Shown: positions 1,923 to 60,215 of the stretch, piece by piece
Layout of the letters: every line of letters starts with the position of its first letter
How positions within the stretch are numbered: position 1 is the first letter of the stretch
Source of the DNA: Mucilaginibacter yixingensis
GTDB taxonomy: Bacteria > Bacteroidota > Bacteroidia > Sphingobacteriales > Sphingobacteriaceae
DNA: 64,000 bases
Reading direction: 5' to 3'
Assembly: GCF_041080815.1 (NCBI RefSeq)
Contig: NZ_CP160205.1
Coordinates: 1,612,001 to 1,676,000 of the forward strand
The notes under the pieces: model-generated
Databases searched by the model: none
What the model saw: only the letters and a program-made list of their open reading frames with translations
What the model was told of the DNA's origin: nothing
Made by a program: the position numbers and the translations under genes

Positions 1923-1964
1923 CAATTTGTCGGTAGAAAATATTTAAAACCGACAAATTGTCGG
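1923..1964. promoter_or_regulatory. Operator-like inverted repeats upstream of the hsp20 gene
   Basis: CAATTTGTCGGT (1923-1934) is perfectly inverted at 1949-1960. A third half-site makes CCGACAA-A-TTGTCGG (1950-1964) a palindrome of its own, giving three TTGTCGG half-sites. It lies 22-64 bp upstream of the sigma-54-like element and does not match the CIRCE (HrcA) sequence. A related TGTCAG dyad sits upstream of grpE. The binding protein is unknown. Confidence 0.7.
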
Positions 1965-1986
1965 CAAGATTGGGCTAAAATCGCGT

Positions 1987-2002
1987 TGGTACAGCAGTTG
2001 AT
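1987..2002 (+). promoter_or_regulatory. Sigma-54-like -24/-12 element of hsp20
   Basis: TGGTACAGCAGTTGAT aligns position by position with TGGCAAGCTTATTGAT in front of grpE (60200-60215). Spacing and bases fit the sigma-54 consensus TGGCAC-N5-TTGCW except that the -12 GC reads GA. It lies 48 bp before the start codon. Inference only; no experimental start site is visible. Confidence 0.4.
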
Positions 2003-2050
2003 CTTAACCAATCACGAAAATAATAAAAAAGAAATAAGGAGAACATAAAA

Positions 2051-2491
2051 ATGACTTTAGTAAAATTTAACAACGGCCACAAATACAACGCAGTTAGTCC
2101 ACGTTTTAGCGACGTTTTAGACTCCATTTTTAACGACTCATTTGCGGGTGAGCGTTTGGCAACCAAAGTGCCTGCTGTAAACATTGCTGAAACCGAAAAC
2201 GAGTTCCATGTAGAGTTAGCAGCTCCTGGTTTGAAAAAAGAAGATTTTAAGATCAGCTTAGATAAAAACGTGTTAAGCGTTAGCGCCGAGAAAAAAGCTG
2301 AACAAGCCGCAGAAGGCAAGAAATACAGCAAACGTGAATATAGCTACAGTTCATTTGTACGTTCATTCACCCTGCCAGAAAGTGCCGACCAATCTAAGAT
2401 TGGTGCCGAATACACTGACGGTATCCTGAAACTGACTGTCGGCAAAAAAGAAGAAGCCAAAGCACAGTCGCGCGAAATTGAAGTAAAGTAA
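2051..2491 (+). CDS. Small heat-shock protein, Hsp20/alpha-crystallin family
   Basis: ATP-independent holdase chaperone that binds unfolding proteins. The 146 residues are typical. A short N-terminal arm is followed by an alpha-crystallin domain (about residues 37-140) with AAPGLKKEDFKISL and the closing strand YTDGILKLTV; the C-terminus is short and charged. The start ATG is preceded by AAGGAG at 2037-2042, a Shine-Dalgarno-like sequence that is unusually strong for Bacteroidota. Upstream lie a triple half-site dyad and a sigma-54-like element shared with grpE, suggesting heat-shock control separate from ordinary promoters. Monocistronic, followed by a terminator. Confidence 0.95.
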   Translation: MTLVKFNNGHKYNAVSPRFSDVLDSIFNDSFAGERLATKVPAVNIAETENEFHVELAAPGLKKEDFKISLDKNVLSVSAEKKAEQAAEGKKYSKREYSYSSFVRSFTLPESADQSKIGAEYTDGILKLTVGKKEEAKAQSREIEVK

Positions 2492-2601
2492 AGCCTCTCT
2501 AACTTTCTACCCAAAGAGAAAGTAAAGCCCTCTCCCTTGGAGAGGGTAGGGCGAGGCCTCAAGACCGTTTTCATAAGAGAGAGGTGTTGGTTTAGTTGAG
2601 G

Positions 2602-2632
2602 AAAGGCCGGTATGCGCAAGCATCCGGCCTTT
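2602..2632 (+). terminator. Terminator after hsp20
   Basis: AAAGGCCGG(T)ATGC, loop GCAA, then GCAT CCGGCCTTT: a 13-bp stem with one bulged T, followed by CATATTTTT. Confidence 0.75.
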
Positions 2633-2649
2633 CATATTTTTGACGAAAG

Positions 2650-2731
2650 TGTCATGCTGAGGAACGAAGCATCTTTGAGGACAGTCCTTATGTATGTCCT
2701 CAGAGATGCTTCACTGTCGTTCAGCATGACA
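2650..2731. repeat. GTCATGCTGAGG-type palindromic repeat
   Basis: Left arm TGTCATGCTGAGGAACGAAG... (2650-2683) and right arm ...CGTTCAGCATGACA (2695-2731) form an imperfect hairpin. The left arm is shared with the repeat at 6087. Confidence 0.8.
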
Positions 2732-2740
2732 TTCACGGAA

Positions 2741-3526
2741 TTAATTGCTTAAAAATTGCTTAACCAAATCCACCGTAACCCGAGGCAGCACGCCGTTAGA
2801 TGGATCATTGCCCATCTCGCCAATAAAGCCGCCATGATGGCCGGGTAATACAATAAGGCTGGCGTTGGGGATCAGCCGGGAAAGTTCAGCAGTATGCTCT
2901 ATTGTAATCACGTCTTTGTCTGACACCATAAGCAGGGTAGGTGCGGTGATGGATTGGAGTTGTTCATCGGGCCAGTCCTGGAAAGTAATCATGCGGTTAC
3001 GGTCTTTCTCAAACATGGTTTGCAGGCCTTCGGTATTTGGGTTTACTTTAAGATAGGCATCTTTCAGTCCTTGCGGCATTACGTCTATCGTAACGTTTGC
3101 CATCCCCTCAAAAAATCCATTAATAAATCCTGATCGCTTGGTAGCGCCGGCAATAGCAATCACTCTGTTAGTCAATTGCGGATGCCGGATAGCCATCTGC
3201 AATACCGTACTACCACCATTGCTGAAACCCATCACATCGGCTTTCCCGATTTTTAAATGATGAAGCAAAGCCGCAACGTCATCAGCATCCTGTGCAAAAC
3301 TTTCTGGCGCATCACGATCGCTGGTGCGGCCATGTGCCTGTAGCTCGACAGCGATGAGTTGGGTGAAACCTGCAAGTAGCGGGATGAGCGTCCCGAAGGT
3401 AGTCTCAATAGTAGACCCGCCGCCGTGAATCAGCACTAACGGCATGGTGCCCTTACCATAGATCTCATAATACATTGAAATGCCGTTTACCGGCGCATAG
3501 CCGGTTTTTACTGCTGCGTTTTCCAT
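2741..3526 (-). CDS. Alpha/beta hydrolase
   Basis: Alpha/beta-hydrolase fold enzyme, 261 residues, no signal peptide, probably cytoplasmic. The oxyanion-hole motif HGGG is at residues 34-37 and the nucleophile elbow G-F-S-N-G puts the catalytic Ser at about residue 102. The acid is Asp203 or Asp205 in MVSDKD, and the base is one of the two His in PGHHGG (230-231). The region between strands 6 and 7 forms a helical cap. The substrate (ester, lactone or similar) cannot be inferred. Single gene with a repeat on its 3' side. Confidence 0.85.
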   Translation of the reverse strand: MENAAVKTGYAPVNGISMYYEIYGKGTMPLVLIHGGGSTIETTFGTLIPLLAGFTQLIAVELQAHGRTSDRDAPESFAQDADDVAALLHHLKIGKADVMGFSNGGSTVLQMAIRHPQLTNRVIAIAGATKRSGFINGFFEGMANVTIDVMPQGLKDAYLKVNPNTEGLQTMFEKDRNRMITFQDWPDEQLQSITAPTLLMVSDKDVITIEHTAELSRLIPNASLIVLPGHHGGFIGEMGNDPSNGVLPRVTVDLVKQFLSN

Positions 3527-3683
3527 GCGGTTATTGTTTTTAGAAAACCCTATGTTGTTGTCAGTCCAATATCGGCTTTAATATTGTGAAAGTGATTGCT
3601 TGCCTAAATGTTTTGTAACTGTCATCCGCTCACACTGTCTTTCGCTATTCCTGGCAATGACAGGCTAAGAGAACTGCAACAAA

Positions 3684-3709
3684 AAAGGGGATGCTTTTGC
3701 ATCCCCTTT
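3684..3709 (-). terminator. Terminator of fabI
   Basis: AAAGGGGATGC, loop TTTT, GCATCCCCTTT: perfect 11-bp stem about 60 bp past the fabI stop, with A/T runs on both sides. Confidence 0.85.
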
Positions 3710-3766
3710 AAATATCTAACCAGAGAAACTAATCTCCAATCAACTAATCACTGATAAACTATCAGA

Positions 3767-4579
3767 TTACTTACCCATGCTCTCCATTACTTCCTGGCTT
3801 ACACCGGTGAAAGAGAAGCCGCCGTCATGGAACAGGTTTTGCATGGTTACCATGCGGGTAAAATCGCTGAATAGCGACACACAATAATCTGCACACTGGT
3901 CTGCATCAGCATTACCCAGCGGACTCATTTTGTCGGCATAATCAATAAAGCCACCAAAACCTTTAACGCCGCTGCCGGCTGTAGTAAGGGTTGGCGATTG
4001 TGATATGGTGTTTACACGTACTTTGTTTTTCTTGCCATAGAAATAACCGAAGTTGCGGGCAATGCTTTCCAGCGCAGCTTTGTTATCGGCCATATCGTTA
4101 TAATCAGGGAATACGCGCTGACCGGCAATATAAGTTAGGGCTACAACAGATCCCCACTCGTTAATGGCGTCCATTTTCATGGCGGTAGCCAGTACACGGT
4201 GCAGGCTCAATGCAGAAATATCGAAACCTTTGTGCGTAAACTCGTAATTGTTCTCATAATAAGGGATGCCTTTACGCACGTTAATACTCATACCAATTGA
4301 GTGCAGTACAAAATCAACACCACCGTTAAAATGCTCCATAGACTTGGTAAACAGGTTCTGTACGTCATCGTTGCTGGTTACATCGGCTGGAATAACGGGT
4401 GCGTTGCACTCTTCGGCCAGTGCGTTTAGCTCGCCCATGCGCAGGGCCAGCGGAGAGTTGGTAAGTACAATTTCTGCACCTTCCTGTACGGCACGCTGGG
4501 CCACTTTCCATGCAATTGATTGCGAGTTTAATGCACCGAAGATGATGCCTTTTTTACCTTTTAATAAATTATAAGCCAT
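3767..4579 (-). CDS. fabI: Enoyl-[acyl-carrier-protein] reductase (NADH)
   Basis: Catalyses the last reduction of each fatty-acid elongation cycle, trans-2-enoyl-ACP to acyl-ACP. It is a divergent SDR with the nucleotide-binding segment GKKGIIFGALNSQSIAWKVA at the N-terminus and the FabI-type Y-x6-K pair in DYNDMADNKAALES, which replaces the Y-x3-K of ordinary SDRs. The C-terminus keeps the substrate-loop region (TAGSGVKGFGGF). I place the start at the ATG giving MAYNLLKGKKG; an in-frame ATG 27 bases upstream would add nine residues not expected in the family. It lies 35 bp behind the TonB-C gene on the same strand, with its own terminator. Confidence 0.95.
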   Translation of the reverse strand: MAYNLLKGKKGIIFGALNSQSIAWKVAQRAVQEGAEIVLTNSPLALRMGELNALAEECNAPVIPADVTSNDDVQNLFTKSMEHFNGGVDFVLHSIGMSINVRKGIPYYENNYEFTHKGFDISALSLHRVLATAMKMDAINEWGSVVALTYIAGQRVFPDYNDMADNKAALESIARNFGYFYGKKNKVRVNTISQSPTLTTAGSGVKGFGGFIDYADKMSPLGNADADQCADYCVSLFSDFTRMVTMQNLFHDGGFSFTGVSQEVMESMGK

Positions 4580-4614
4580 AGCTGTTAGTTTGTTATGCGA
4601 TGGCAAAGTTATAA

Positions 4615-5424
4615 TTATTTATCAGTTAGTATAAATTGAACAACAATCGATTCTGGGCAAACTATACCGCCTTGTCCGTGAGCGGGTTGCCATTTAGTTT
4701 GAGCAATTAAGCATATTACTTCTTCTTCGCAACCATAGCCAATTCCCTGCACCACACGCGGGTTCACTACCGAACCATCTTTTTCAATCTCAAAATTAAC
4801 TTTAACCAACCCTTCAATATGGTTTTTTACGGCTTGCTCCGGATAGACAAGCTGTTGCTTAATACGCTTTTTTAACCGCTCATTTCCACCAATGGGTTCG
4901 GCTTGACTCTCTATCATTGGGCCAGGCCCACAGTCAAAACATGTTATTTCCTCAAACTTGATTTTCTGTTTTTTACGTTGATTTATTGCGTTGGTTTGCA
5001 CAACAATAGGGTCGGCTTCACTACTAACAGCTGCGGGCTTTATTTCAGGCAAAGTAATTTCTACATATCGGCTGCCACGATTTTGAAACCACGTTGCATA
5101 ACGGCCCGTACCAAAAATTATCAGTGTGTCATTGTGTTTAGCGCCATCTAGTGTAAACCTTCCATTAGCGTCCGTTTTTGCAAGTAAATTTCTGCTGGTT
5201 GCCGAATAATAAGTTAACGATGCTACCGATACATCAGGGACAGGCTTTCCGGTATGATCTAAAACAATACCTCTTAGATTGACGGTATCGATATAAATCG
5301 TTTTATAGGTGGGGTTTGCCGACCTTTCTACATAACTGGCTTGAGCCTCTCCTTTTAAAGAAAAACACAACAGCGCAATTATAAATTGCATGGGGTAGGA
5401 GAAGCAGAAAGATAAACTTTTCAT
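4615..5424 (-). CDS. Carboxypeptidase-regulatory-like and TonB C-terminal domain protein
   Basis: Probable periplasmic protein. A signal-anchor or signal peptide (MKSLSFCFSYPMQFIIALLC) is followed by a CarboxypepD_reg-like beta-sandwich (GIVLDHTGKPVPDVSVAS... about residues 50-115) and a C-terminal TonB-type domain (LVYPEQAVKNHIEGLVKVNF... about 195-265). TonB-C domains of this kind normally contact TonB-dependent outer-membrane receptors or act as envelope linkers. A CFDCGPGP segment with two Cys lies between the domains. I chose the second ATG because it opens directly into the signal sequence. There is no ExbB or ExbD nearby, so it is unlikely to be the energising TonB itself. Confidence 0.75.
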   Translation of the reverse strand: MKSLSFCFSYPMQFIIALLCFSLKGEAQASYVERSANPTYKTIYIDTVNLRGIVLDHTGKPVPDVSVASLTYYSATSRNLLAKTDANGRFTLDGAKHNDTLIIFGTGRYATWFQNRGSRYVEITLPEIKPAAVSSEADPIVVQTNAINQRKKQKIKFEEITCFDCGPGPMIESQAEPIGGNERLKKRIKQQLVYPEQAVKNHIEGLVKVNFEIEKDGSVVNPRVVQGIGYGCEEEVICLIAQTKWQPAHGQGGIVCPESIVVQFILTDK

Positions 5425-5444
5425 GATGACAATACCTGTCACCA

Positions 5445-5470
5445 AAAATAACTAAATATTTAGTTATTTT
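5445..5470. terminator. 26-bp perfect A/T-rich palindrome at the cupin stop codon
   Basis: AAAATAACTAAAT followed directly by its exact complement. It includes the cupin gene's stop codon (5464-5466) and lies 20 bp before the start of the next gene. Probably a terminator, though weak in G+C. Confidence 0.55.
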
Positions 5471-5898
5471 AAATCGTAAGTAATCAGCACCGCCAAATCT
5501 TCATTTCCGGCAGGTTTCAATCCATGGCTGCTGCCTGGTTTAGTGAGGATGGCATCGCCGGTTGTTACGGGGATATCTTTGCCGTTCATTTGCAAAATGC
5601 CGTTGCCGCTGAGGATATAATAAATTTCGTCTTCTTTTTGGAGGTGGTAGCCGATGGACGATCCCGGATGAAGAATGCGTTTACGGAAAGCTATTTTTAG
5701 CGATTGATCTTTACTGAAGAAGGGGACGGCTGTGGTATTACCGCCGCCATTATGGCTGCCGGGCTCTGCTTTTTTGATGTCTTGCTCATGTTCTATAATA
5801 AACCCCTCGCTTTGTGTAGTGGCTGCTGCAGAAAATATGCAGGCGATGATACACCATAGCACCAGCAGTAAGTGCTGCACTTTTAGTTTGTTTTTCAT
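5464..5898 (-). CDS. Secreted cupin-domain protein
   Basis: Single cupin_2 beta-barrel with an N-terminal signal peptide (MKNKLKVQHLLLVLWCIIACIFSAAA). Cupin motif 1 is HPGSSIGYHLQKEDEIYYILSG and motif 2 is GDAILTKPGSSHGLKP, with the His and Glu residues expected to hold a metal. The start is placed at the ATG that opens the signal peptide; upstream in-frame codons add an unlikely leader. Substrate and reaction are unknown; isolated secreted cupins can be isomerases, dioxygenases or sugar-binding proteins. Confidence 0.75.
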   Translation of the reverse strand: MKNKLKVQHLLLVLWCIIACIFSAAATTQSEGFIIEHEQDIKKAEPGSHNGGGNTTAVPFFSKDQSLKIAFRKRILHPGSSIGYHLQKEDEIYYILSGNGILQMNGKDIPVTTGDAILTKPGSSHGLKPAGNEDLAVLITYDLK

Positions 5899-6290
5899 GA
5901 AGATGTTATAGCAATAGTAGGTTTCAACTACTAAGATAGACAGCAGCTCATTGATAATCAATGTTATTTGTGTGATAAGGTTGTAACAATCGCTTTACAT
6001 TGATGGCGCGGGGAAAGCTACTGACTTGTCATTTGGCTGAAATAGCCTTTTTATCGCTTTAAATAGCATCATGAATTTAAGGGACTTGTCATGCTGAGGA
6101 ACGAAGCATCTCTGAGGACTATTTTGGGAGAAGCGTGGTGGGTGGGCCTCTCCGCGCGAGTCTTCGACAAGCTCAGACTGACAGCCCTCTCGTTTGTCAT
6201 TTCACCTTCATGGTCCCGCTGCCGGGATTCTGCTGCTCAGCCTGACAATTGGGCTTCTTAATTTCATAACATTACCGGAGAGTGTGAGGT
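5899..6290. other. Intergenic region between cupin and recN
   Basis: About 390 bp without a convincing gene. The cupin side is A/T-rich and should hold its promoter. The recN side is filled by a chimeric palindromic repeat (6087-6183). I see no RNA gene. Confidence 0.7.
6087..6183. repeat. Chimeric palindromic repeat (GTCATGCTGAGG left half, TCTTCGACAAGCTC right half)
   Basis: The left half (TGTCATGCTGAGGAACGAAG...) matches the repeat at 2650. The right half, from about 6136, is almost identical over 50 bp to 27404-27453. The two halves no longer pair well, so it looks like a recombinant of two subfamilies. Confidence 0.8.
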
Positions 6291-7967
6291 CTAAACCCCT
6301 AGCAATTCTCTTGCGTTCTGCAATGCGCTTTCGCCAGGCTTGTCGCCGCTTAGCATTTTGGCTATTTCGGTAATGCGTTCGCCATCATCAAGACGGCGCA
6401 GTCGGGTGTAGGTAACATCGGCCTGGTGGTCTTTATAAACAAAGTAATGGCTATTACCCTTGCTGGCAATTTGCGGCAGGTGCGTAATACTGATCACTTG
6501 CATATTTTGCGATAGTTGCTCCATGATCTGGCCAACTTTGTGTGCTACCTCGCCAGATACACCGGTGTCAATCTCATCAAAAATAATGGTAGGCAGGGCG
6601 GTGTAACGTGCAATGAGCGATTTGATGCTCAGCATCAAACGCGATAATTCACCGCCCGACGCTACTTTGCTCATCTCTGCCAGCGCATGGCCCTTGTTGG
6701 CGGTGAAGAGGAAGCGCACCTGATCGAGGCCGTTTTCCCCCAATCCCCCTGAAGGAGAGTTATGTGCCGATGCTGTGGCGAGCTCTATTTTCATGGCTGA
6801 GTTGCCCATGCCCATTTCTGCCAGTGCTTCCAGTACTTGTTTTTCTATGGCAGGGATGGCTTGCTGGCGACGGTTAGATAACCCGGTGGCCATTTGCAGC
6901 AGCTCGGCTTGCTCGGCGGCTATTTGTTTTTGCAGTTTTTCTATCGCTTCATCGCTAAACAGCGCGTTCTGAATCTTATCACTCAGATCTTGCTGTATCT
7001 GTAACAGTTCGGTGTTGGTGCTAACGCGATGTTTCTTTTGCAGGTTATAGATCAGGCTTAAACGGGTGTTTACCTCTTCGGCGCGGGCCGGATCGGTGTG
7101 GGTCTGCTGCTCCAGGTGGTCTATCTCTGCCGAAATATCTTTCAATTCGATCACCGTACTGTTTAATCGCTGATGCAGATCAGCTATCTGCGGATTGAAT
7201 TTCTCTAATGCCGATAGTTGCTGACCGGCCTCACGCAGTTGCAGCAGGGCAGCGGCTTCGCCTTCCTGTAACAGGTAATTAGCGCTAAGCAGGCTGCGTT
7301 TAATCTCGTCGGCGTTGTTGAGCGTGTATAGTTCTTGTTCCAGCTGTTCCTGCTCATCGGCGGCCAGGGCGGCGGCATCCAGCTCATCAAACTGAAACTG
7401 GAAGTAATCCAAATCTGCCTTAGCTTTGTCGCTTTCTTCAATCAACTGTTTTAGCTCTGCATTTAGCTTACGCCAAGCTTTATATTTGGTCTGATAGGCC
7501 GATAATTCTATTGCGTGGCCAGCAACGGCATCAACCACCAGTAACTGAAACTGCGGACTATTAATTTCCAGCGTAGCGTGTTGCGAATGGATCTCTATCA
7601 GCTTTTCGCCCAGTGCTTTCAGCGTGGTGAGGTTCACTGGTGTATCATTCACAAAGGCGCGCGATTTACCATCGGCGCTAATCTCGCGGCGCAATACGGT
7701 TTCGGCTTCGTAGTCCAGGTCGTTATCCTCAAAAAAGCTTTTCAAATGGAAACCATCTATCTTAAACTGACCCTCAATCACACATTTTTTCTGCTGATTA
7801 AAAAAATAGCGGCTCTCGGCCCGCTGACCGAGTATGAGCGACAACGCGCCCAAAATGATAGATTTACCCGCGCCGGTCTCGCCAGTCAATATATTCAAGC
7901 CTGCATCAAAACCAATCTGCAGGTTGTCAATCAAAGCGTAGTTGTTAATAGTTAGCTGTTGAAGCAT
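6291..7967 (-). CDS. recN: DNA repair protein RecN
   Basis: SMC-like ATPase that acts early in recombinational repair of double-strand breaks. It has 558 residues, normal for RecN. Walker A GETGAGKS lies near residue 34, a long coiled-coil spans roughly 160-370, the ABC signature SGGELSRLML is near 437 and Walker B/D-loop IIFDEIDTGVSG is near 465. Oddity: the segment NSPSGGLGENG near residues 396-408, just before the signature half, is encoded by a C-rich sequence (6737-6761) that resembles half of the palindromic repeat at 27855-27926, so a repeat has probably been absorbed in frame. The gene is colinear with coaBC and the PorD-like gene but separated from them by blaI-blaR1. Confidence 0.95.
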   Translation of the reverse strand: MLQQLTINNYALIDNLQIGFDAGLNILTGETGAGKSIILGALSLILGQRAESRYFFNQQKKCVIEGQFKIDGFHLKSFFEDNDLDYEAETVLRREISADGKSRAFVNDTPVNLTTLKALGEKLIEIHSQHATLEINSPQFQLLVVDAVAGHAIELSAYQTKYKAWRKLNAELKQLIEESDKAKADLDYFQFQFDELDAAALAADEQEQLEQELYTLNNADEIKRSLLSANYLLQEGEAAALLQLREAGQQLSALEKFNPQIADLHQRLNSTVIELKDISAEIDHLEQQTHTDPARAEEVNTRLSLIYNLQKKHRVSTNTELLQIQQDLSDKIQNALFSDEAIEKLQKQIAAEQAELLQMATGLSNRRQQAIPAIEKQVLEALAEMGMGNSAMKIELATASAHNSPSGGLGENGLDQVRFLFTANKGHALAEMSKVASGGELSRLMLSIKSLIARYTALPTIIFDEIDTGVSGEVAHKVGQIMEQLSQNMQVISITHLPQIASKGNSHYFVYKDHQADVTYTRLRRLDDGERITEIAKMLSGDKPGESALQNARELLGV

Positions 7968-8051
7968 AAAAATTGCCCCCTTTTTGAGAGGACACTAAAG
8001 TACAAATATTATGGTGAGTAGCAGAACAGCCATTGCATCATAATAACCATT

Positions 8052-8137
8052 ACGTCATTGCGAGGTACGAAGCAATCTCTGTACTTGGCATATACGATTT
8101 GCATTTGCAGAGATTGCTTCGTGCCTCGCAATGACGT
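8052..8137. repeat. GTCATTGCGAGG-type palindromic repeat
   Basis: 30-bp arms (8052-8081 and 8108-8137) with one mismatch, 26-bp loop. Same family as 63282-63379, the half-degenerate copy at 28848-28915 and the mini-copy at 39767-39795. Confidence 0.9.
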
Positions 8138-8182
8138 GCCGGATAACCAAAATATTCTTTTCCTGGCTTCAGTTATAAACCA

Positions 8183-8215
8183 AAACATCCGAAGTTTTTA
8201 AAACTTCGGATGTTT
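8183..8215 (-). terminator. Terminator of the blaI-blaR1 unit
   Basis: AAACATCCGAAGTTT pairs with AAACTTCGGATGTTT over 15 bp with a very short loop, 24 bp beyond the blaR1 stop. Confidence 0.85.
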
Positions 8216-8238
8216 GTATAGAGCATTATATCTAATAA

Positions 8239-10308: not shown

Positions 10309-10314
10309 AACGGT

Positions 10315-10692: not shown

Positions 10693-10708
10693 GACGTTTT
10701 TCTCTATC

Positions 10709-10748
10709 TACGATAATCTTCGTACAAAGATGTACGATGGTTTTCGTA
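10709..10748 (-). promoter_or_regulatory. Tandem BlaI operators
   Basis: Two perfect dyads with the form TACGA-N6-TCGTA at 10709-10724 and 10733-10748, centres 24 bp apart, separated by exactly the 8-bp -7 hexamer region. The arrangement lets two repressor dimers cover the promoter on both sides of the -7 box. Confidence 0.85.
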
Positions 10749-50513: not shown

Positions 50514-50536
50514 TAGGTTAATTGGGTGGTGATAAC

Positions 50537-51350: not shown

Positions 51351-51923
51351 ATGACCGCCGCCTTGTCTTATCCTCCCGCGGGTTACAAACCTGTTAGCTT
51401 TTCTGTTACCACCATTACCGAGCTGATGATACCTTCATACGCCAATTTTGGTGGTAAAATACACGGCGGTATATTGTTGTCACTAATGGACAAGGTTGCC
51501 TATGTATGCGCAGCCAAACATGCCGGTAACTACTGCGTAACAGCGTCTATTGATGCGGTTAATTTTTTGGCGCCGGTTGAGGTTGGCGATCTGGTGTCGC
51601 TCATTGCGTCAGTTAACTACGTTGGTAAAACATCTATGGTGGTGGGCATCAAGGTGATTTCTGAGAACGTAAAAGCCAGCGTTGTTCAACATACCAATAC
51701 CAGCTATTTTACAATGGTAGCTAAGGATGATCAAAACAAGCCGGCAGAAGTGCCTGGCCTGATATTGGAGACTCAGGAGCAAGTAAGACGATTTGAGGAA
51801 GCACGCAAACGCAAGGAGCTAAAGCAGTCTTACGGCCAGGAAATGCAAAAAATAAAAGCCGAACTTGATTACGATACCTGCCGCGAAACATTGGCAGGCG
51901 AGCGATGCTGGATTAATTTATAA
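51351..51923 (+). CDS. Acyl-CoA thioesterase, hot-dog ACOT/YciA type
   Basis: 190 residues. The hot-dog thioesterase core (about 18-130) carries MIPSYANFGGKIHGGILLSLMDKVAYVCAAKHAG with the catalytic N-x-x-G-x-x-H-G-G/Asp arrangement of acyl-CoA hydrolases and SIDAVNFLAPVEVGDLVSLIASV. It likely hydrolyses short to medium acyl-CoA. The C-terminal extension (about 140-190) is charged and helical, ending in Cys-containing DYDTCRETLAGERCWINL, which is unusual for YciA. Separate from the histidine kinase gene by 27 bp, so may be cotranscribed. Confidence 0.85.
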   Translation: MTAALSYPPAGYKPVSFSVTTITELMIPSYANFGGKIHGGILLSLMDKVAYVCAAKHAGNYCVTASIDAVNFLAPVEVGDLVSLIASVNYVGKTSMVVGIKVISENVKASVVQHTNTSYFTMVAKDDQNKPAEVPGLILETQEQVRRFEEARKRKELKQSYGQEMQKIKAELDYDTCRETLAGERCWINL

Positions 51924-51950
51924 ACTAGTTATAACGATTGACCTTTTAAT

Positions 51951-53873: not shown

Positions 53874-53915
53874 TGTCGTTTTTTCCATTATACAAGCTTA
53901 CAACCTTTATGAGTA

Positions 53916-53937
53916 TATAGAGGCAAATGCCTCTATA
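53916..53937 (+). other. Hairpin downstream of the histidine kinase gene
   Basis: TATAGAGGCA-AA-TGCCTCTATA, a perfect 10-bp stem without a T-tract. May stabilise the 3' end. Confidence 0.45.
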
Positions 53938-54044
53938 CGGTAAAGAAAGCGTAAATTATTTTTTATGGAATGATGGGCAATAGAAAAATTCTGTTATTTT
54001 TGAAACGGTTATTTTAATAGGGGTATTGAATAACTATCACCAAG

Positions 54045-54065
54045 ACCGGGTCCATAGGGCCCGGT
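54045..54065 (+). terminator. Terminator downstream of the histidine kinase gene
   Basis: ACCGGGTCC, loop ATA, GGGCCCGGT followed by TTTATTGTTTAATTA on the plus strand; one G-T pair in the stem. The T-tract direction fits the kinase gene rather than the opposite YciF-like gene. Confidence 0.65.
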
Positions 54066-54103
54066 TTTATTGTTTAATTACTTTGCGGCTGTTGATACTC
54101 AAA

Positions 54104-54622
54104 TTAAGCATTTTGCTGAGCCAGATACTCGTTAGTAATCATGAGGAATAACCGGTCATCATCTACCGATTCATCAAAGCTTTCAATCAGCAACTGATCA
54201 ATTTCTCCATAATTTAATGATCCGGCCAGTATACGCAGCATACGGTAGGCGGTAATATTGATATGCTCAATCAGCTGCATGTAAAGCATCAAATCCATAT
54301 CGCTTAGCAGCTCCATACCAATGCCACGACGCTCCAGCGTAAATACTTCTTTGAAAATAGACTGTACAGGTATGCAATCAGCATCAGAGGGTATGATGCC
54401 GGCTTTCTCATAAATCTCGTCCAGGCGATCCAGTTGTTTCTTTACATCATCCCAAAGCTCTTCTAAGGCTAATTGCAGATTGCGGAAAGAGGCTATATTA
54501 ACCAGGCGTTCCAGCGTATCATTTAGATAGTGCTTGCCAAAATAAAGACGATTAAGGTGATGGGCAAAAAGCTGTTTCAGAGCATCAGGATCTGTTACTT
54601 GGGGGTTTGAGGCGTTTTTCAT
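54104..54622 (-). CDS. DUF892/YciF-like ferritin-like protein
   Basis: 172 residues, four-helix bundle of the YciE/YciF family. Matching segments: LFAHHLNRLYFGKHYLNDTLERL (first helix), LQLALEELWDDVKKQLDRLDEIYEKAG (second), MDLMLYMQLIEHINITAYRMLRILAGSLNYGEIDQLL (third) and ESVDDDRLFLMITNEYL (fourth). YciF proteins are stress-linked and bind a di-iron site; several of the expected Glu/His ligands are visible but not complete, so iron binding is unproven. Cytoplasmic, single gene. Confidence 0.75.
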   Translation of the reverse strand: MKNASNPQVTDPDALKQLFAHHLNRLYFGKHYLNDTLERLVNIASFRNLQLALEELWDDVKKQLDRLDEIYEKAGIIPSDADCIPVQSIFKEVFTLERRGIGMELLSDMDLMLYMQLIEHINITAYRMLRILAGSLNYGEIDQLLIESFDESVDDDRLFLMITNEYLAQQNA

Positions 54623-54727
54623 TATGAATCAGGGTAAGTTAATAGCTAAAGTTATGGTTTTTAGCATTATTATATTAAAGCCTGAAACGGAAAACGGGAT
54701 GAATAGTTTTTAAAAGAATGGACGATA

Positions 54728-55378
54728 TTATGACGCCAATTGGTCATCGCCCAGCATTAGTTTTACCAGGCGATAAATAGGATACACAAAAAACGGTGCC
54801 ATTAGAATGTCCATTGTGTAATGTACATGTTGAACCAACAGCAGGCACGCTACCGTAAATACAGCTATTAAGCCCAGTATTCTATCGCCTTTTTTCTCGA
54901 GTGTAAGATATATTAGCAGCAGGGTAGTTGTATGGCCAGAAAAGAAAAGGTCTTTAGTGATGGTGGCGTGACCGTAAAAAATACCGGTAAGCGGGTCAGT
55001 CAATTGAATTAAACCGGCAGGCGGATCCAACTTTACAATACTGATGGTGAACATGCGTACTATCAGTGTAAGTGCATAGGCCCATACGTAAGTAACATAC
55101 ATTGATGGCCTGCGTGCCGCGCGGTAGAATGCCAGCCCGCCCATGCCCCAAATAATGGCAAAAATAACCACAGACATATTATGAGCCGGTATTTGAGCCA
55201 ATACCCAGTCATTTACCTGCACGCCTTTGCGCAACTCAATATTGGCAAAAAATGATGGCAGTATGCATAACACCACAGCCAGCAATACCGAGCCGGTAAT
55301 CATCTGGAAACGGCCCATGGATGAGTTCCAAACCAGCTTCCAGGTTTCTTTTAACGATATACTATTAGATCTGCTCAA
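54728..55378 (-). CDS. PAP2_C membrane protein, sphingomyelin-synthase-like
   Basis: 216 residues with about six membrane helices. The two catalytic motifs of the PAP2_C/sphingomyelin synthase type are present: KDLFFSGHTTTLLLIYL (His in S-G-H-T) and LLVQHVHYTMDILMAPFFVY (the second His and Asp in H-Y-T-x-D). Sphingobacteria make sphingolipids, so it may transfer a phospho-head group to ceramide or act on lipid phosphates; this is inference. Single gene. A TTAAGGCC...GGCCTTAA dyad lies in its leader (55393-55425). Confidence 0.78.
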   Translation of the reverse strand: MSRSNSISLKETWKLVWNSSMGRFQMITGSVLLAVVLCILPSFFANIELRKGVQVNDWVLAQIPAHNMSVVIFAIIWGMGGLAFYRAARRPSMYVTYVWAYALTLIVRMFTISIVKLDPPAGLIQLTDPLTGIFYGHATITKDLFFSGHTTTLLLIYLTLEKKGDRILGLIAVFTVACLLLVQHVHYTMDILMAPFFVYPIYRLVKLMLGDDQLAS

Positions 55379-55487
55379 CGCTCAAAATCAGATTAAGGCC
55401 CGCAAAAATACGGTTTCGGCCTTAAATGTTAAATATATTTTAAATAAAGATCAATATAAAGGATGAAATTGAGATGAATGGTTTACA

Positions 55488-55525
55488 AAAAAATAACGCG
55501 AACTGTCAGGCCCGCGTTATTTTTT
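55488..55525 (-). terminator. Terminator of the yceI-like gene
   Basis: AAAAAATAACGCG and its exact 13-bp complement around a 12-nt loop, about 80 bp past the stop codon. Confidence 0.8.
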
Positions 55526-55603
55526 AGCTATTAGTTTAATGGTAATTGGTGAATTGCAGTAGTGGATACCTACTCACAACTCAACATTCTCAACTCACTA
55601 AAA

Positions 55604-56179
55604 TTAGTCTTTAGTTACTTCAGCGTTAGCGTCAAGAGTTACTTCATCGCTTAACATAGCGTTGCCAAATTTAGCACCTACACCAAAGTCGCTGCGTTTA
55701 ATGGTACCGGTAATTTTAAAACCGGCAGTATTTTTTTTGCTCATCTGGTTAACGTAAGTACCGCGCAGTTTAACATCCAGGGTAACTGGTTTAGTTACAC
55801 CGTGCAGGGTAAGGTTACCGGTTACTTTATAAGTTTTATCGGCTACTTTTTTGAAAGATGTGCTTTTGAAGCTCATTTTTGGATATTTAGCAGCGTCAAA
55901 AAAGTCAGCGCTTTTCAGGTGGGTATCGCGTTGATCGTTATCGGTGTTAACAGAAGCTACATCAGCGTTCAGGTCAACAACAGCATCGCTAAAGTCATCT
56001 TTAGATGAGGTTACTTTTGCGCTGAATGATTTGAATGAACCTTCAACGTCTGATACCATCATGTGGGTAACAGTAAAGCCTAATTTAGAGTGAGCATTGT
56101 CTACAGTCCAGCTATTGTCGGCAGCAGGTTTAAAAGCAAACAGGGCAACAGTAGCGGCGAGAGTGATAAATTTTTTCAT
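55604..56179 (-). CDS. YceI family exported lipid-binding protein
   Basis: 191 residues. Signal peptide MKKFITLAATVALFAFKPAA, then the YceI eight-stranded lipocalin-like barrel: WTVDNAHSKLGFTVTHMMVSDVEGSFKSFSA, VDLNADVASVNTDNDQRDTHLKSADFFDA, GNLTLHGVTKPVTLDV and IKRSDFGVGAKFGNAMLSDEVTL. These proteins bind isoprenoid-type lipids in the periplasm. A classic, well-conserved member. Single gene. Confidence 0.92.
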   Translation of the reverse strand: MKKFITLAATVALFAFKPAADNSWTVDNAHSKLGFTVTHMMVSDVEGSFKSFSAKVTSSKDDFSDAVVDLNADVASVNTDNDQRDTHLKSADFFDAAKYPKMSFKSTSFKKVADKTYKVTGNLTLHGVTKPVTLDVKLRGTYVNQMSKKNTAGFKITGTIKRSDFGVGAKFGNAMLSDEVTLDANAEVTKD

Positions 56180-56313
56180 TGTTTTTAAATTAAATGTTTA
56201 AACATACAAATGTTGGCATAATACTTTACTCCTGCAATTGATCTATATCAAGAAATTGTCATGATTGTAAATAGGTGGAGAAATGAAGCAATCTCGTCTT
56301 ACTGGTGTGCGAT

Positions 56314-56375
56314 GACGAGAGATCTCTGAGGACAAGCTAATAGGACTTTTCGTAGAGATGCTGCGTTCCTCGGCT
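56314..56375. repeat. Degenerate GTCATGCTGAGG-type repeat
   Basis: GAGATCTCTGAGGAC and AGAGATGCTGCGTTCCTCGGC keep parts of the family at 2650; the ends are lost. Confidence 0.5.
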
Positions 56376-56432
56376 TGAGATATAGAATTTGGTGCCACGC
56401 CGTTTTGGCCTCCAACCGGAGTTAGTTACCCA

Positions 56433-57194
56433 TTAAAACAAGCGTTTAATGATGCGCAGTTTGTGCGTGTACTTCTTTTGATCAGCAGCGTAAATGCCCT
56501 GATTATCTATAGTATCTATACGCACCTTGCCAGAGGCATGGATAATTTGCTCGTTATTGAGCATAATGCCTACGTGTACAATGCGGCCTTCATCATTATC
56601 AAAAAATGCCAGATCACCTAATTTGGCCTCCTGCAGAAAGTCTACTGTGTTGCCTTGCTCGGCCTGCATGTAGGCGTCGCGTTTCAGTAATATATTTTGC
56701 GTGCGCATTACTGCCTGGGTAAAGCCAGAGCAGTCAATACCAAAGTGTGTGCGGCCGCCCCACAGGTAGGGGGTGTTTAAAAATGATTTGGCGATAGCCT
56801 CAAAATCCGGTTGCTCACCAATCTCAGTCATTATTTCAAAAGCATCATCTGCAATATCAACGATGGTGCCTTTCAGAAAAGATAATGAGCTGCCGAAAGG
56901 CAGGTATACCATAGAATCATCAGTTCGTTTCCTGGCCTGAGTAACCGGGTGGATAGTAAAAGTAGCCGGGTTTTCTATGAGTGATTGATAGGAGGCCTGC
57001 TCCAGCGTTTTAAAAAGCAATTTATTTAGCCAACCCTCATAACCATCAAACGCGGTGATGACGCGGGCCCATTGCCCGTTCCATTCCATAATCTCAAATG
57101 CCTCGCCAAATAAAATTTGCGATACCTGTTCGGCGCGTTCAGAAGGCTGGGCGCGCAGGGGAGCCATTGCCAGGTTACAAATGCCGTATTCCAT
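56433..57194 (-). CDS. SH3-domain NlpC/P60 (C40) peptidase
   Basis: Predicted cell-wall endopeptidase, 253 residues, no signal peptide visible. Two SH3b-like modules (1-60 with MAPLRAQPSERAEQVSQILFGEAF..., and about 75-115) precede the NlpC/P60 papain-like domain (about 130-253). The nucleophile Cys lies in LWGGRTHFGIDCSGFTQAVMR, the His in GRIVHVGIML and the third polar residue in IIHASGKVRID. This architecture matches YkfC-type dipeptidyl peptidases that act on gamma-D-Glu-linked muropeptides. Single gene, divergent from nothing close. Confidence 0.88.
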   Translation of the reverse strand: MEYGICNLAMAPLRAQPSERAEQVSQILFGEAFEIMEWNGQWARVITAFDGYEGWLNKLLFKTLEQASYQSLIENPATFTIHPVTQARKRTDDSMVYLPFGSSLSFLKGTIVDIADDAFEIMTEIGEQPDFEAIAKSFLNTPYLWGGRTHFGIDCSGFTQAVMRTQNILLKRDAYMQAEQGNTVDFLQEAKLGDLAFFDNDEGRIVHVGIMLNNEQIIHASGKVRIDTIDNQGIYAADQKKYTHKLRIIKRLF

Positions 57195-57244
57195 AGGAGA
57201 TGATTTTAAGGCTTAATAAACCACTAAAATAATAAGAAACAAAA

Positions 57245-57268
57245 AAAGGAATGCGTTAACATTCCTTT
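57245..57268 (-). terminator. Terminator of the ferredoxin gene
   Basis: AAAGGAATG, 6-nt loop, CATTCCTTT, 22 bp past the stop codon. Confidence 0.8.
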
Positions 57269-57290
57269 AGTATCTAAAATGATATGCTCA

Positions 57291-57644
57291 TTATTCGTTC
57301 ATGTGCAGCCAGTCTTTTTTGGCCAGCAGCTCTTCTTCAGATTCGCGTACGTCTTCGTCGTCCACACAGCAATCTACCGGACAAACGGCAGCACACTGAG
57401 GCTCGTCGTGGAAACCCACACACTCAGTACACTTGTCTGGAACAATATAATAGATATCATCGCTCAGGGCGGCTTGTGTTTCTTCGGCATTCAGGGTGTT
57501 ACCGTCGCCAAAGTCAATAACGCCGCGCAGGCCTGTTCCATCGCTAAAACGCCAAGCAGCGCCGGCATCGTAGATAGCGTTATTTGGGCACTCCGGTTCA
57601 CAAGCTCCGCAGTTTATGCATTCGTCGGTGATTTTAATCGCCAT
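57291..57644 (-). CDS. Dicluster 4Fe-4S ferredoxin
   Basis: 117 residues. Two clusters: C-I-N-C-G-A-C-E-P-E-C-P near residues 9-20 and the C-terminal set CTEC..., CAAVCPVDCC near 76-98, separated by an insertion DDIYYIVPDKC. It should pass electrons between redox enzymes in the cytoplasm. The start is the ATG giving MAIKITDECI; the longer reading adds an implausible leader into the intergenic zone. It lies divergently opposite the acyl-CoA reductase (103-bp gap), a conserved neighbour in Bacteroidota, so the two may work together. Confidence 0.93.
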   Translation of the reverse strand: MAIKITDECINCGACEPECPNNAIYDAGAAWRFSDGTGLRGVIDFGDGNTLNAEETQAALSDDIYYIVPDKCTECVGFHDEPQCAAVCPVDCCVDDEDVRESEEELLAKKDWLHMNE

Positions 57645-57746
57645 TTTATAAAATATCTTAACTAGTAAATTTAACTTTGCCTTGCTAAAACAAGGATGCA
57701 AATATAACAAAAAATGCTTTTATGGGGTTATAAACCCACCATCAAT

Positions 57747-58772
57747 ATGTCAAAATTTATACCACAACAATATATTAATGCTTTTTCGGCCCTGGGCCAG
57801 CAATTGAATCACCCGGAAGGAGAGCTGCGCAGCCTCATTCAAAGCGAACATTTATACAATCCGTGGTTCACCCAACAGAGCGTTCTTGACGCGGTAATGG
57901 CCATAGGAGCCATGCTGAGCGAAGAAAATTTAGCCCAATGGCTGAGCCGTTACCCCGAAGCCGGCGCTAATCCCTCAAAAAAAGTTGGATTGATTTTGGC
58001 CGGAAATATTCCGCTGGTTGGTTTTCACGATGTGCTATGCGTACTAATTTCTGGCCATGAGGCGCTGATCAAAACCTCTGCACAAGACACTCGTTTAATT
58101 AAATATGTACTGCAGTTATTAACAGAAATTGAACCGGATTTTGCCGGCAAATATCAGTTTGTTGAGCGATTGGCCGGTTTTGAGGCCGTGATTGCTACCG
58201 GTAGCAACAATACATCGCGCTATTTTGAGTTCTATTTTGGCAAGGTGCCTCACATCATTCGGAAAAACCGTAACAGTGTTGCGTTGCTTACCGGCAATGA
58301 AACTACAGCGCAGTTGCACCAGTTAGGGAATGATATTTTTGAGTACTTCGGTTTGGGCTGCCGTAATGTATCTAAAATGATGGTGCCTGAGGGGTATGAT
58401 TTTGTGCCATTTTTTGAGTCTATTGAAAGTTATAACGAAATATCAAATCACCATAAGTACCATAATAATTACGATTATAATAAATCTATCTATCTGGTAA
58501 ACAAGGATAAGCATCTGGATAATGGTTTTTTACTGGTGAAAGAGGATACCGGACTAACATCGCCGTTGGCCGTTTTGCACTATGAAACTTATACAGATTT
58601 GGCAGATGCCGAACAAAAGCTGCAAGCACAAACAGACAACATACAATGCGTGGTAACCATAGCCAACGTTAACCTGAATAACCAGGTAGTGGGCTTTGGC
58701 CAGAGCCAGCACCCTGCCGTTTGGGATTATGCCGATGGTGTAGATACCATGCGGTTTTTAGCAGCGTTGTAA
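57747..58772 (+). CDS. LuxC-like acyl-CoA reductase
   Basis: 341 residues. Member of the acyl-CoA reductase family (LuxC), which reduces long-chain acyl-CoA to aldehyde. Conserved text: KKVGLILAGNIPLVGFHDVLCVLISGHEALIKTSAQDTRLIKYVL, VIATGSNNTSRYFEFYFGKVPHIIRKNRNSVALLTG and FEYFGLGCRNVSKMMVPEGYDF, in which the Cys fits the thioester-forming residue. I start at MSKFIPQQYI since the upstream in-frame ATG lies in the gap. Divergent from the ferredoxin gene. Confidence 0.85.
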   Translation: MSKFIPQQYINAFSALGQQLNHPEGELRSLIQSEHLYNPWFTQQSVLDAVMAIGAMLSEENLAQWLSRYPEAGANPSKKVGLILAGNIPLVGFHDVLCVLISGHEALIKTSAQDTRLIKYVLQLLTEIEPDFAGKYQFVERLAGFEAVIATGSNNTSRYFEFYFGKVPHIIRKNRNSVALLTGNETTAQLHQLGNDIFEYFGLGCRNVSKMMVPEGYDFVPFFESIESYNEISNHHKYHNNYDYNKSIYLVNKDKHLDNGFLLVKEDTGLTSPLAVLHYETYTDLADAEQKLQAQTDNIQCVVTIANVNLNNQVVGFGQSQHPAVWDYADGVDTMRFLAAL

Positions 58773-58774
58773 GC

Positions 58775-58959
58775 GGTTCATGGTTCATAGGTGATGGTTC
58801 ATGGGCCGGTTAATTGCGGGGGATAAGACAGAAAACTATGAACTACGATCTATCAACCATGAACTATATTAATATAAATTATACCTTTGGAAATGCGGTA
58901 AATGGAGTAGTGATGGCAGATATAGAATTGCTATGAACTATGATCCATTAACCACGAAC
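58775..58959. repeat. GGTTCATGG / CTATGAAC intergenic repeat cluster
   Basis: GGTTCATGGTTCATAGG and GATGGTTCATGG on the left face CTATGAACTACGATCTA, CAACCATGAAC and a further CTATGAACTATGATCC copy on the right, forming several alternative hairpins. Same family as 19591-19676. Fills the gap before the small FtsE-linked gene. Confidence 0.65.
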
Positions 58960-58964
58960 TAACA

Positions 58965-59168
58965 ATGTACATCATTAAAGTAAAAGGCGTTGCCAAGATA
59001 CCCGATTACGTGCAGCTGCGCGACGAGCAGTTTACGCTGCTGGCTTATTTTAGGGTAGACAGGCCCGAGAAATCGCTGGATAAAATTGGTTTGAGCGATA
59101 AAGCCGATTATATTATGAACCTGATCAAAGAGCTGCCATTCGGGCAGATCATGAAACTTGAATTGTAA
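58965..59168 (+). CDS. Small conserved protein upstream of ftsE
   Basis: 67 residues, no signal peptide and no membrane helix. Sequence KVKGVAKIPDYVQLRDEQFTLLAYFRV... DYIMNLIKELPFGQIMKLEL suggests a compact alpha/beta protein. I do not recognise a named family. It precedes ftsE by 6 bp, so the two are cotranscribed and probably linked, possibly as a regulator or adaptor of the ABC ATPase. A dispersed repeat lies just upstream of its start. Confidence 0.75.
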   Translation: MYIIKVKGVAKIPDYVQLRDEQFTLLAYFRVDRPEKSLDKIGLSDKADYIMNLIKELPFGQIMKLEL

Positions 59169-59174
59169 CGGAAA

Positions 59175-59855
59175 ATGATAGGAAATACCATTATAAAGCT
59201 GGAAGGTGTAGACGTTTTTCAACAGAAGCACCTGGTACTCTCAAACGTTAACCTGCATATTGATAAAGGCGATTTTGTATGGCTCATCGGTCAAACCGGT
59301 TCGGGTAAAAGTAGCTTGCTGAAAGTGATTTACGGCGATGTTGCCATTACTGGTGGTGAAGGCCATGCCGGCGGTTACGATTTGAAAAAGCTGGCTGTTA
59401 AAGATGTACCTTTTCTGCGCCGTAAGCTGGGTATTGTTTTCCAGGATTTCCAATTATTGACCGACCGTTCTATTGAAGATAACCTGCGCTTTGTAATGCG
59501 CGCAACCGGCTGGACCGACAAAAACCTGATCACCGAGCGTACGCTTGATGTGCTGGAGAAAGTTGGTTTGCGCTCTAAAGTGAAAAAAATGCCGCATGAG
59601 CTATCAGGTGGCGAGCAACAGCGCGTGGTAATTGCCCGCGCACTGATTAACGACCCGGAAATCATCCTGGCCGATGAACCTACCGGTAACCTTGACCCCG
59701 ATACGTCTGAAGAGATTGTAATGCTGTTGAAACAGATCAGTCAGTCAGGCACCGCTGTGTTGATTGCTACGCATGATTATCATATCATCCGCGCTTTCCC
59801 ATCACGTATCATCAAATGCGAGGCAGGTAAGGTGATTGAGGATGCGGAGCTGTAA
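59175..59855 (+). CDS. ftsE: Cell-division ABC ATP-binding protein FtsE
   Basis: 226 residues. ATPase that with FtsX links division to peptidoglycan hydrolases. Walker [18 protein letters not shown] near 38, Q-loop [16 protein letters not shown], signature [15 protein letters not shown] near 137, Walker [17 protein letters not shown] near 158 and H-loop ATHDYHII. The Q-loop and the GNLDP text fit FtsE rather than general lipoprotein exporters. No ftsX follows; in Bacteroidota it is often unlinked. It follows the small protein gene by 6 bp. Confidence 0.9.
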
Positions 59856-59946
59856 GTTTTAGTGAGTGGTGAATAATGCGTGGTTGGCTACGGTCAATTC
59901 TTGCCTTTTTGTTCCTGAGTTTTTCTTGTAGCAATCGTTCATCATA

Positions 59947-60111
59947 AACCCGGGTGCAGCGGAAACCCCGCAACGTGGGTTGATGGTGCGGCGGGCAGGT
60001 GAGGAGTTGGAGCGGAAGACGGGGCTGTGGTGGCCGAAATATGATAAACGCTCGTTTTCAAGATACTCTATTTTATCTCAAAATAAATTACCGGCTAAAG
60101 CCTATAACTGA
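59947..60111 (+). other. GC-rich structured element or small ORF of 42 codons
   Basis: Nested stems are visible: AACCC (59947-59951) with GGGTT (59977-59981), and inside them GCGG (59959-59962) with CCGC (59968-59971). From the ATG at 59983 a 42-codon frame runs to TGA at 60109-60111, encoding MVRRAGEELERKTGLWWPKY and then a basic tail. The element is far richer in G+C than the sequence on either side. It could be a small RNA, a dispersed element or a real peptide gene; I cannot choose. Confidence 0.4.
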
Positions 60112-60119
60112 GAAAGAAC

Positions 60120-60139
60120 TGTCAGTTCAAAAACTGACA
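60120..60139. promoter_or_regulatory. TGTCAGTT-N4-AACTGACA dyad upstream of grpE
   Basis: Perfect 8-bp arms (60120-60127 and 60132-60139). Further TGTCA/TGCCA half-sites follow at 60155-60159 and 60174-60178. Related to the TTGTCGG half-sites upstream of hsp20; no CIRCE sequence. Confidence 0.6.
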
Positions 60140-60199
60140 CCTGCCAACTATTACTGTCACTGCTACTTAAAACTGCCACCCTGACGTACCAAACTTAAA

Positions 60200-60215
60200 T
60201 GGCAAGCTTATTGAT
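60200..60215 (+). promoter_or_regulatory. Sigma-54-like -24/-12 element of grpE-dnaJ
   Basis: TGGCAAGCTTATTGAT, same spacing and nearly same bases as at 1987-2002 before hsp20, with GA instead of GC at -12. 32 bp before the grpE ATG. Confidence 0.4.

What the first reader, a model, noticed from the sequence alone, without database searches (positions are those of the whole stretch)
1923..60215. Two heat-shock loci share a sigma-54-like element and TGTCRG dyads
The hsp20 and grpE genes, 58 kb apart, both have TGGYA-N6-TTGAT (1987-2002 and 60200-60215) at 48 and 32 bp before the start codon, preceded by perfect inverted repeats built on TTGTCGG (1923-1964) or TGTCAG (60120-60139). The spacing equals sigma-54 -24/-12 sites, but both have GA instead of GC at -12. 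Neither locus has a CIRCE box. This suggests a shared heat-shock regulon using an unusual RpoN-type promoter or an unknown activator. Caveat: the match was noticed after the fact and only two loci are in the window.
Basis: partly seen in the sequence, partly recalled or inferred. Interest (0 to 1): 0.72.

Follow-up and report, generated by a model that had tools for sequence, protein, structure and literature searches.

The report
Sigma-54 heat-shock regulon, candidate activator
Two heat-shock genes in this bacterium share a sigma-54-type promoter plus a paired DNA signal that recurs at other chaperone genes and in front of one activator gene in related bacteria, so a testable candidate for the switch that turns on heat-shock genes can be named.

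Summary
The host is inferred to be a Mucilaginibacter. hsp20 and grpE carry TGGYA-N6-TTGAT, conserved in relatives at a fixed place. They share one dyad, CYGACA-N3-TGTCRG: 1919-1933 and 1950-1964 for hsp20, and a degenerate copy at 60173-60187 for grpE (not the 60120-60139 repeat). In the class the dyad lies 10-12, 21-22, 32 or 42-44 nt before the -24 element, on one helical face. -24/-12-like sites also precede dnaK, clpB, htpG, lon and groES in Mucilaginibacter. The base after TTG is A or T at 121 of 138 distinct sites, so 'GA instead of GC' is the rule.

Sigma-54 control of these genes is already published for Flavobacterium psychrophilum; the text I read names no activator. I propose one: a 414-aa enhancer-binding protein without a receiver domain, encoded between miaB and lptE, upstream of groES-groEL. 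A likely orthologue is in 105 of 105 class genomes sampled. The same dyad overlaps the sigma-A promoter of its operon in 22 of 22 first-fetched genomes. In a genome with exactly one such protein, dyad and promoter still precede dnaK, htpG and grpE.

Binding, activation and heat induction are inferred, not measured. New variant of a known kind.

The parts
1919..1933 (.). distal dyad of hsp20, ATGTCAATTTGTCGG (proposed activator site 2)
   Evidence: a second copy about 30 bp upstream of the proximal one is visible by eye in most Mucilaginibacter hsp20 upstreams
1950..1964 (.). proximal dyad of hsp20, CCGACAAATTGTCGG, 22 nt before TGG
   Evidence: gap 21 or 22 in 20 of the 22 same-genus loci with a site
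1986..2002 (+). hsp20 -24/-12 element TTGGTACAGCAGTTGAT; start expected near 2013 (inferred from spacing)
2051..2491 (+). hsp20 (small heat-shock protein)
   Evidence: Pfam HSP20 2.3e-25
60173..60187 (.). grpE dyad, degenerate copy CTGCCACCCTGACGT, 12 nt before TGG
   Evidence: intact CTGACANNNTGTCGG-like copies at the same place in relatives
60200..60215 (+). grpE -24/-12 element TGGCAAGCTTATTGAT; start expected near 60226 (inferred from spacing)
60249..60841 (+). grpE, taking the ATG at 60249 as start
   Evidence: Pfam GrpE 9.9e-42 on the ORF 60236-60841; sequence
61000..62163 (+). dnaJ, next gene on the same strand, probably co-transcribed with grpE (inferred)
   Evidence: Pfam DnaJ domains
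   Evidence: no counterpart seen

Best explanation
hsp20 and grpE belong to a sigma-54 heat-shock regulon of the class. RNA polymerase with sigma-54 sits on the -24/-12 element (TTGGNA-N6-TTG, with A or T rather than C at -12). Dimers of one enhancer-binding protein (EBP) bind CTGNCA-N3-TGTCAR dyads placed in whole helical turns upstream and open the closed complex by ATP hydrolysis. The proposed activator is the 414-aa protein between miaB and lptE (G000:C1:4478394-4479635), upstream of secG-groES-groEL. It has a sigma-54 AAA+ domain, a variable linker and a Fis-type HTH, but no receiver or other recognised sensor domain, so like PspF it must be controlled in trans. It represses its own sigma-A promoter through the same dyad. 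Shown: sequence conservation, phasing, regulon membership, gene order, the dyad at the activator's promoter. Inferred: binding, activation, autorepression, heat induction, the trans signal.
For: (1) -24/-12-like sites at heat-shock genes: Mucilaginibacter 41 of 43 gene upstreams (dnaK, clpB, htpG, lon, groES) against about 0.6 expected; rest of class 38 of 65 against about 1; other classes 3 of 21. (2) Phasing: 108 dyads found 0-51 nt before distinct sites, at gaps 10-12 (76), 21-22 (20), 32 (1), 42-44 (9), and 2 off-phase (3 and 35); 2 in the reversed-sequence control. (3) rpoN present; RpoN box ARRTVAKYRE identical to E. coli and the arginine aligned with E. coli R383 kept. (4) Activator: best match at E <= 4.3e-122 in 105 of 105 class genomes; HTH 80% mean column identity against 49% for the linker in 32 rows, 30 genomes. 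(5) groES lies just downstream of the EBP in 19 of 25 class genomes where both could be placed. (6) Dyad plus TAnnTTTG before miaB-EBP in 22 of 22 class genomes, 0 of 11,000 mononucleotide shuffles. In the other held sequence, about 3.5 million bases over both strands, the same search gave 8 distinct strings: 6 lie about 1.5 kb before this EBP again (five already counted, one new genome, L338), 2 elsewhere; none within about 1 kb upstream of the other five own EBP genes. (7) G154 has one rpoN match and exactly one EBP, this one, yet dyad + site precede dnaK (gap 12), htpG (gap 11) and grpE (gap 12). (8) Independent: F. psychrophilum mapped starts with a sigma-54 motif at groES-groEL, lon, dnaK, grpE-dnaJ, htpG, clpB (PMC9723704).
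Against: No expression, binding or mutant data. The proximal dyad is centred near -44 or -55, closer than usual for enhancer sites (recalled). Own dnaK, lon and the Clp-type gene show no dyad scoring 9 of 12 within 75 nt of the site; own groES was not scored because its -12 departs from the pattern. In the rest of the class clpB has a site in 4 of 13 and groES in 5 of 14. In G154 the dnaK and grpE sites depart from the strict pattern (CGGCA; TGGAG), the dnaK dyad is weak, these were found by relaxed search or by eye, and nothing was found for its groES. A genus scan (41 genomes) for the composite pattern gives 60 matches against 21 reversed controls; 45 look like grpE or hsp20 by sequence, one is htpG and one clpB. 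Sequence model R1 (grpE) found neither window gene in the own genome; R2 (hsp20) found hsp20 and, at E 0.49, the dyad before miaB (only 150 candidates scored). The class boundary of the EBP is not sharp: worst class match 4.3e-122, best outside 1.7e-119, with 45-49% full-length homologues in other classes; two class matches align over the first 309-334 residues only. In other classes 0 of 13 EBP neighbourhoods had dyad + TAnnTTTG. Two later class genomes have only imperfect versions of it, and a third has no miaB beside the EBP. No natural rpoN knock-out: the four genomes without an rpoN match still hold 2-15 EBP genes, so assembly gaps are likely.
Confidence: 0.78

Rival explanations
1. Sigma-54 promoters are real, but the dyad is bound by a different regulator, for example a repressor that also controls the miaB-EBP operon; the EBP acts without this site or another EBP activates.
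For: The dyad lies close to -24, where a repressor could act; it also overlaps a sigma-A promoter at miaB. Own genome holds six strong EBP matches.
Against: G154 has one EBP only and keeps the dyad at three sigma-54 promoters. A class-wide dyad needs a class-wide binder; this EBP is in 105 of 105 and its HTH is highly conserved. Other factors were not surveyed.
Confidence: 0.17
2. The element is a sigma-A or ECF promoter, or a post-transcriptional feature, that resembles -24/-12 by chance.
For: The -12 C of the sigma-54 consensus is mostly absent.
Against: Fixed GG-N10-G spacing, no TAnnTTTG in the 200 nt before either window gene, and mapped sigma-54-motif starts at the same genes in F. psychrophilum.
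Confidence: 0.04
3. Chance: two unrelated matches noticed after the fact.
For: The single pattern occurs 76 times in the genome.
Against: Conserved position and sequence in relatives, and recurrence at dnaK, clpB, htpG, lon, groES.
Confidence: 0.01

Closest known systems
Flavobacterium psychrophilum SM4 (sigma-54) promoters, PMC9723704 (passages and section 15 part 1 read)
   Same: sigma-54 -24/-12 motif mapped before groES-groEL, lon, dnaK, grpE-dnaJ, htpG, clpB; a sigma-54 regulator-lptE transcript lies near groES by locus tag
   Different: the text I read names no activator for these genes, no operator dyad, no phasing and no autoregulation; hsp20 is not in the selected table I read; supplements not read
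Computed sigma-54 regulons, PMC12316311 (passages read)
   Same: GroEL, GroES, IbpA, GrpE, DnaK, DnaJ enriched as sigma-54 targets in Bacteroidota
   Different: no activator or dyad in the passages read
PspF and the phage-shock response (recalled)
   Same: enhancer-binding protein with no N-terminal sensor domain, stress regulon, negative autoregulation
   Different: C-terminal linker, gene context and targets differ; below the NCBIfam PspF cut-off
Myxococcus xanthus HsfA-HsfB control of lonD (recalled)
   Same: sigma-54-type activator of a heat-shock gene
   Different: two-component response regulator; the protein here lacks a receiver domain
HrcA-CIRCE and sigma-32 heat-shock control (recalled)
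   Same: controls the same chaperone genes elsewhere
   Different: CIRCE absent from the window; an exact CIRCE appears in 1 of 451 loci held then, a groES upstream of another class. hrcA and rpoH genes were not searched for

Membership tests
sigma-54 (-24/-12) promoter | GG at -24 and G at -13 with ten bases between | tested here: met
   both window sites; invariant TGG and TTG in 22 chosen grpE sequences and 15 chosen hsp20 sequences
sigma-54 (-24/-12) promoter | C at -12 | tested here: not met
   A 88, T 33, C 14, G 3 of 138 distinct sites; window sites have A. So it departs from the textbook consensus, though mapped promoters at the same genes elsewhere are called sigma-54
sigma-54 (-24/-12) promoter | rpoN in the genome | tested here: met
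   G000:C1:3606640-3607116, 388 of 392 phylum genomes
sigma-54 (-24/-12) promoter | transcription lost without rpoN, start 12 nt after the -12 element | not testable with these tools
   needs experiment
SM4-type chaperone regulon of Bacteroidota | same promoter type at groES, dnaK, grpE, htpG, clpB, lon | tested here: met
   groES with a changed -12
bacterial enhancer-binding protein | sigma-54 AAA+ domain with Walker A and GAFTGA-type loop, plus HTH | tested here: met
   PF00158 4.3e-68, HTH_8 1.9e-11; own GESGSGKE and GAYTGA; variants of both in the alignment
PspF-like EBP without sensor domain | no N-terminal regulatory domain | tested here: met
   AAA+ begins at residue 12; only AAA+, lid and HTH models exceed their Pfam cut-offs
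PspF-like EBP without sensor domain | over the NCBIfam PspF cut-off | tested here: not met
   268.2 bits against 443.55; it is not PspF itself
HrcA-CIRCE | CIRCE inverted repeat upstream | tested here: not met
   0 in window with 3 mismatches

The most novel reading that the evidence does not exclude
Across this class of Bacteroidota the heat-shock response is run by one conserved sensor-less enhancer-binding protein, encoded in the groES-groEL neighbourhood, which activates relaxed -12 sigma-54 promoters from helically phased CTGNCA-N3-TGTCAR dyads and represses its own operon; with no sensor domain, its activity is set by protein-folding state in trans, for example by free chaperone binding it.
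Probability: 0.3. Interest if true: 0.82.

Novelty: new variant of a known kind. Interest (0 to 1): 0.62.

Why it matters
How Bacteroidota switch on chaperone genes has been unclear: sigma-54-motif promoters were mapped in a fish pathogen, but I found no named activator in nine searches of an open-access library. This work gives one named protein, one DNA site and a gene list that a single knock-out and one ChIP experiment could settle. It also shows that sigma-54 sites at these genes should be sought with A or T at -12; a strict TTGC box would miss 124 of the 138 distinct sites.

Tried and rejected
Genomes lacking rpoN as natural knock-outs: rejected, because all four without a match (G286, G333, G353, G404 of 392) still hold 2-15 EBP genes. 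Sequence models R1 and R2 over the own genome: little found beyond hsp20 and the miaB dyad, because only 150 candidates are scored. CIRCE: absent. Composite pattern scan over 41 genus genomes: 60 matches against 21 controls, so it finds grpE and hsp20 but cannot list a full regulon; two of the three own-genome hits lie in coding sequence. A first control on the other five own EBP genes looked only 400 nt upstream; the proposed activator fails that test too, since its dyad lies before miaB, so it said nothing; one search looked about 1 kb upstream and over all other held sequence. The hsp20 locus L052 scored at gap 33 carries the other dyad type (CTGAAAAATTTTCAC) and is not counted as support. 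In one search some start codons were guessed; the G154 grpE start was wrong and was corrected. In one search groES was given a relaxed -12, 21 other-class loci and repeated identical sites were left out; three of the 32 rows are the same G154 protein.

Full report
What was checked. The window is G000:C1:1612001-1676000 of a 5.36-Mb genome. The nearest named GrpE relatives are Mucilaginibacter, so I take the host to be one. Pfam confirms hsp20 at 2051-2491, grpE, and dnaJ at 61000-62163. The pattern on its own is weak evidence: 76 genome matches, against 24 for the reversed control.

Conservation. Upstream sequences of 30 hsp20 homologues and 110 grpE loci were read. grpE: TGGCA-N6-TTG in 109 of 110; the best dyad ends 10-12 nt before TGG in 105 of those 109. 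These counts include contigs held twice; 49 distinct grpE sites remain. Consensus of 22 chosen sequences: CTGACAGCTTGTCGG-N11-TGGCA-N6-TTGATT. hsp20: of 23 same-genus loci 22 have TGGNA-N6-TTG; the dyad ends 21-22 nt before it in 20 of the 22, 44 in one, and one (L052) carries another dyad type; two more distant homologues have gap 11. The two genes therefore share one 15-bp dyad; the window's grpE copy is a worn one.

Regulon. Own htpG and clpB also have a dyad 12 nt before the site, with 9 and 10 of 12 positions. Counts against dinucleotide shuffles: Mucilaginibacter dnaK 11 of 11 (0.09 expected), clpB 9 of 11 (0.20), htpG 11 of 11 (0.10), lon 4 of 4 (0.04), groES 6 of 6 with a relaxed -12 (0.16). 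Rest of class: dnaK 13 of 16, grpE 4 of 6, clpB 4 of 13, htpG 12 of 16, groES 5 of 14. Other classes: 3 of 21 in all. groES of Mucilaginibacter reads TTGGCATAATTGATG, with a changed first base of the -12 triplet.

Phasing and -12. Among distinct class sites, 108 dyads lie at gaps 10-12, 21-22, 32 and 42-44, with two exceptions at 3 and 35; the reversed control gives 2 dyads. Taking each gene-gap value once (23 values), the vector length at period 10.7 is 0.86 and was not reached in 20,000 uniform draws. Relatedness and the choice of upstream length limit this as a formal test. The base after TTG is A 88, T 33, C 14, G 3.

Activator. The own genome has six strong sigma-54 activator matches. One, 414 aa, lies in miaB-EBP-lptE-TPR-secG-groES-groEL, all on one strand. 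It has AAA+, lid and HTH_8 and no sensor domain, and none of the 25 NCBIfam models shown reaches its cut-off. The best match in 105 of 105 class genomes is at E <= 4.3e-122; the best of the other 287 is 1.7e-119, so the border is gradual. groES lies just downstream in 19 of 25 class genomes in which both genes could be placed: 9 of 11 by coordinates and 11 of 15 by fetched neighbourhoods, one genome in both sets. The miaB-EBP operon of 22 of 22 class genomes has TGNCA-N3-TGTC, 18-22 nt (11 in one) before TAnnTTTG, that is over the -33 position. Searching everything else held, about 3.5 million bases over both strands, gives 8 distinct strings: five repeat operons already counted, one is a further genome's (L338, about 1.5 kb before its EBP), one lies in a grpE upstream and one before groES of L430. 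Two later class genomes have only imperfect versions, and a third has no miaB there. Of 13 genomes of other classes, 9 have miaB beside the EBP and none has the dyad with TAnnTTTG.

Single-activator genome. G154 (same class, 2.0 Mb) has one rpoN match and one PF00158 match at E <= 1e-20, which is this EBP beside miaB and lptE. Its htpG has ATGACAAACTGACAA-N11-TGGTACGGGGATTGTG, its dnaK CTGCCATTTTTTCAC-N12-CGGCACGGTGATTGA, and its grpE GGGACAAATTGTCGG-N12-TGGAGCCATAATTGAG (read by eye). Nothing was found for its groES, and no clpB was located. If sigma-54 needs an EBP, as is established, this one must serve any sigma-54 promoter there.

Literature. PMC9723704 (search listing, passages and section 15 part 1) maps sigma-54-motif starts at the same genes and notes three PF00158 proteins without assigning one; its Table 2 lists a sigma-54 regulator-lptE transcript, under another motif, four locus tags from groES. 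PMC12316311 (passages) reports sigma-54 enrichment of chaperone genes in Bacteroidota and calls grpE and groES of Bacteroides thetaiotaomicron sigma-54-dependent. PMC7366714 and PMC12596196 on that species (term counts and passages) hold no 'RpoN'. Supplements were not read. That the activator is not in print rests on the searches in an open-access library only.

Verdict. What this adds is hsp20 with its doubled dyad, the shared phased operator, the rule of A or T at -12, and a strongly supported but untested candidate activator. How the activator senses heat is unknown; control in trans is inferred from the missing sensor domain.

Noticed in passing
L191 (G000:C1:5151500-5155500), hsp20 paralogue on minus strand: A second hsp20 has TGGCACGGGACTTGAA and a different dyad, CTGAAAAATTTTCAC, next to a receiver-like and a PAS/kinase-like ORF (by eye); it may be a second sigma-54 circuit.
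   Followed up: partly
G092, G390, G295, G256: In four class genomes with two EBPs the second EBP gene lies about 2-5 kb from grpE.
   Followed up: no
L413:521-547: Exact CIRCE element before groES in a genome of another class, which suggests HrcA control there instead of sigma-54.
   Followed up: partly
L241, own genome C1:1150690: TGGCAATATTGTTGAT 97 nt before a ClpA/ClpC-type gene; membership in the regulon uncertain, no dyad seen.
   Followed up: partly
window 57714-58772: A 352-aa ORF with no Pfam match.
   Followed up: no
upstream of grpE in several Mucilaginibacter loci: Runs of half-site-like repeats such as actgccactgctactgccac precede the operator.
   Followed up: no
L470 (G008:C59:22000-23600), about position 894: Composite dyad + TGGCA-N6-TTG hit in a Mucilaginibacter before an ORF of unknown function; possible non-chaperone target.
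   Followed up: no
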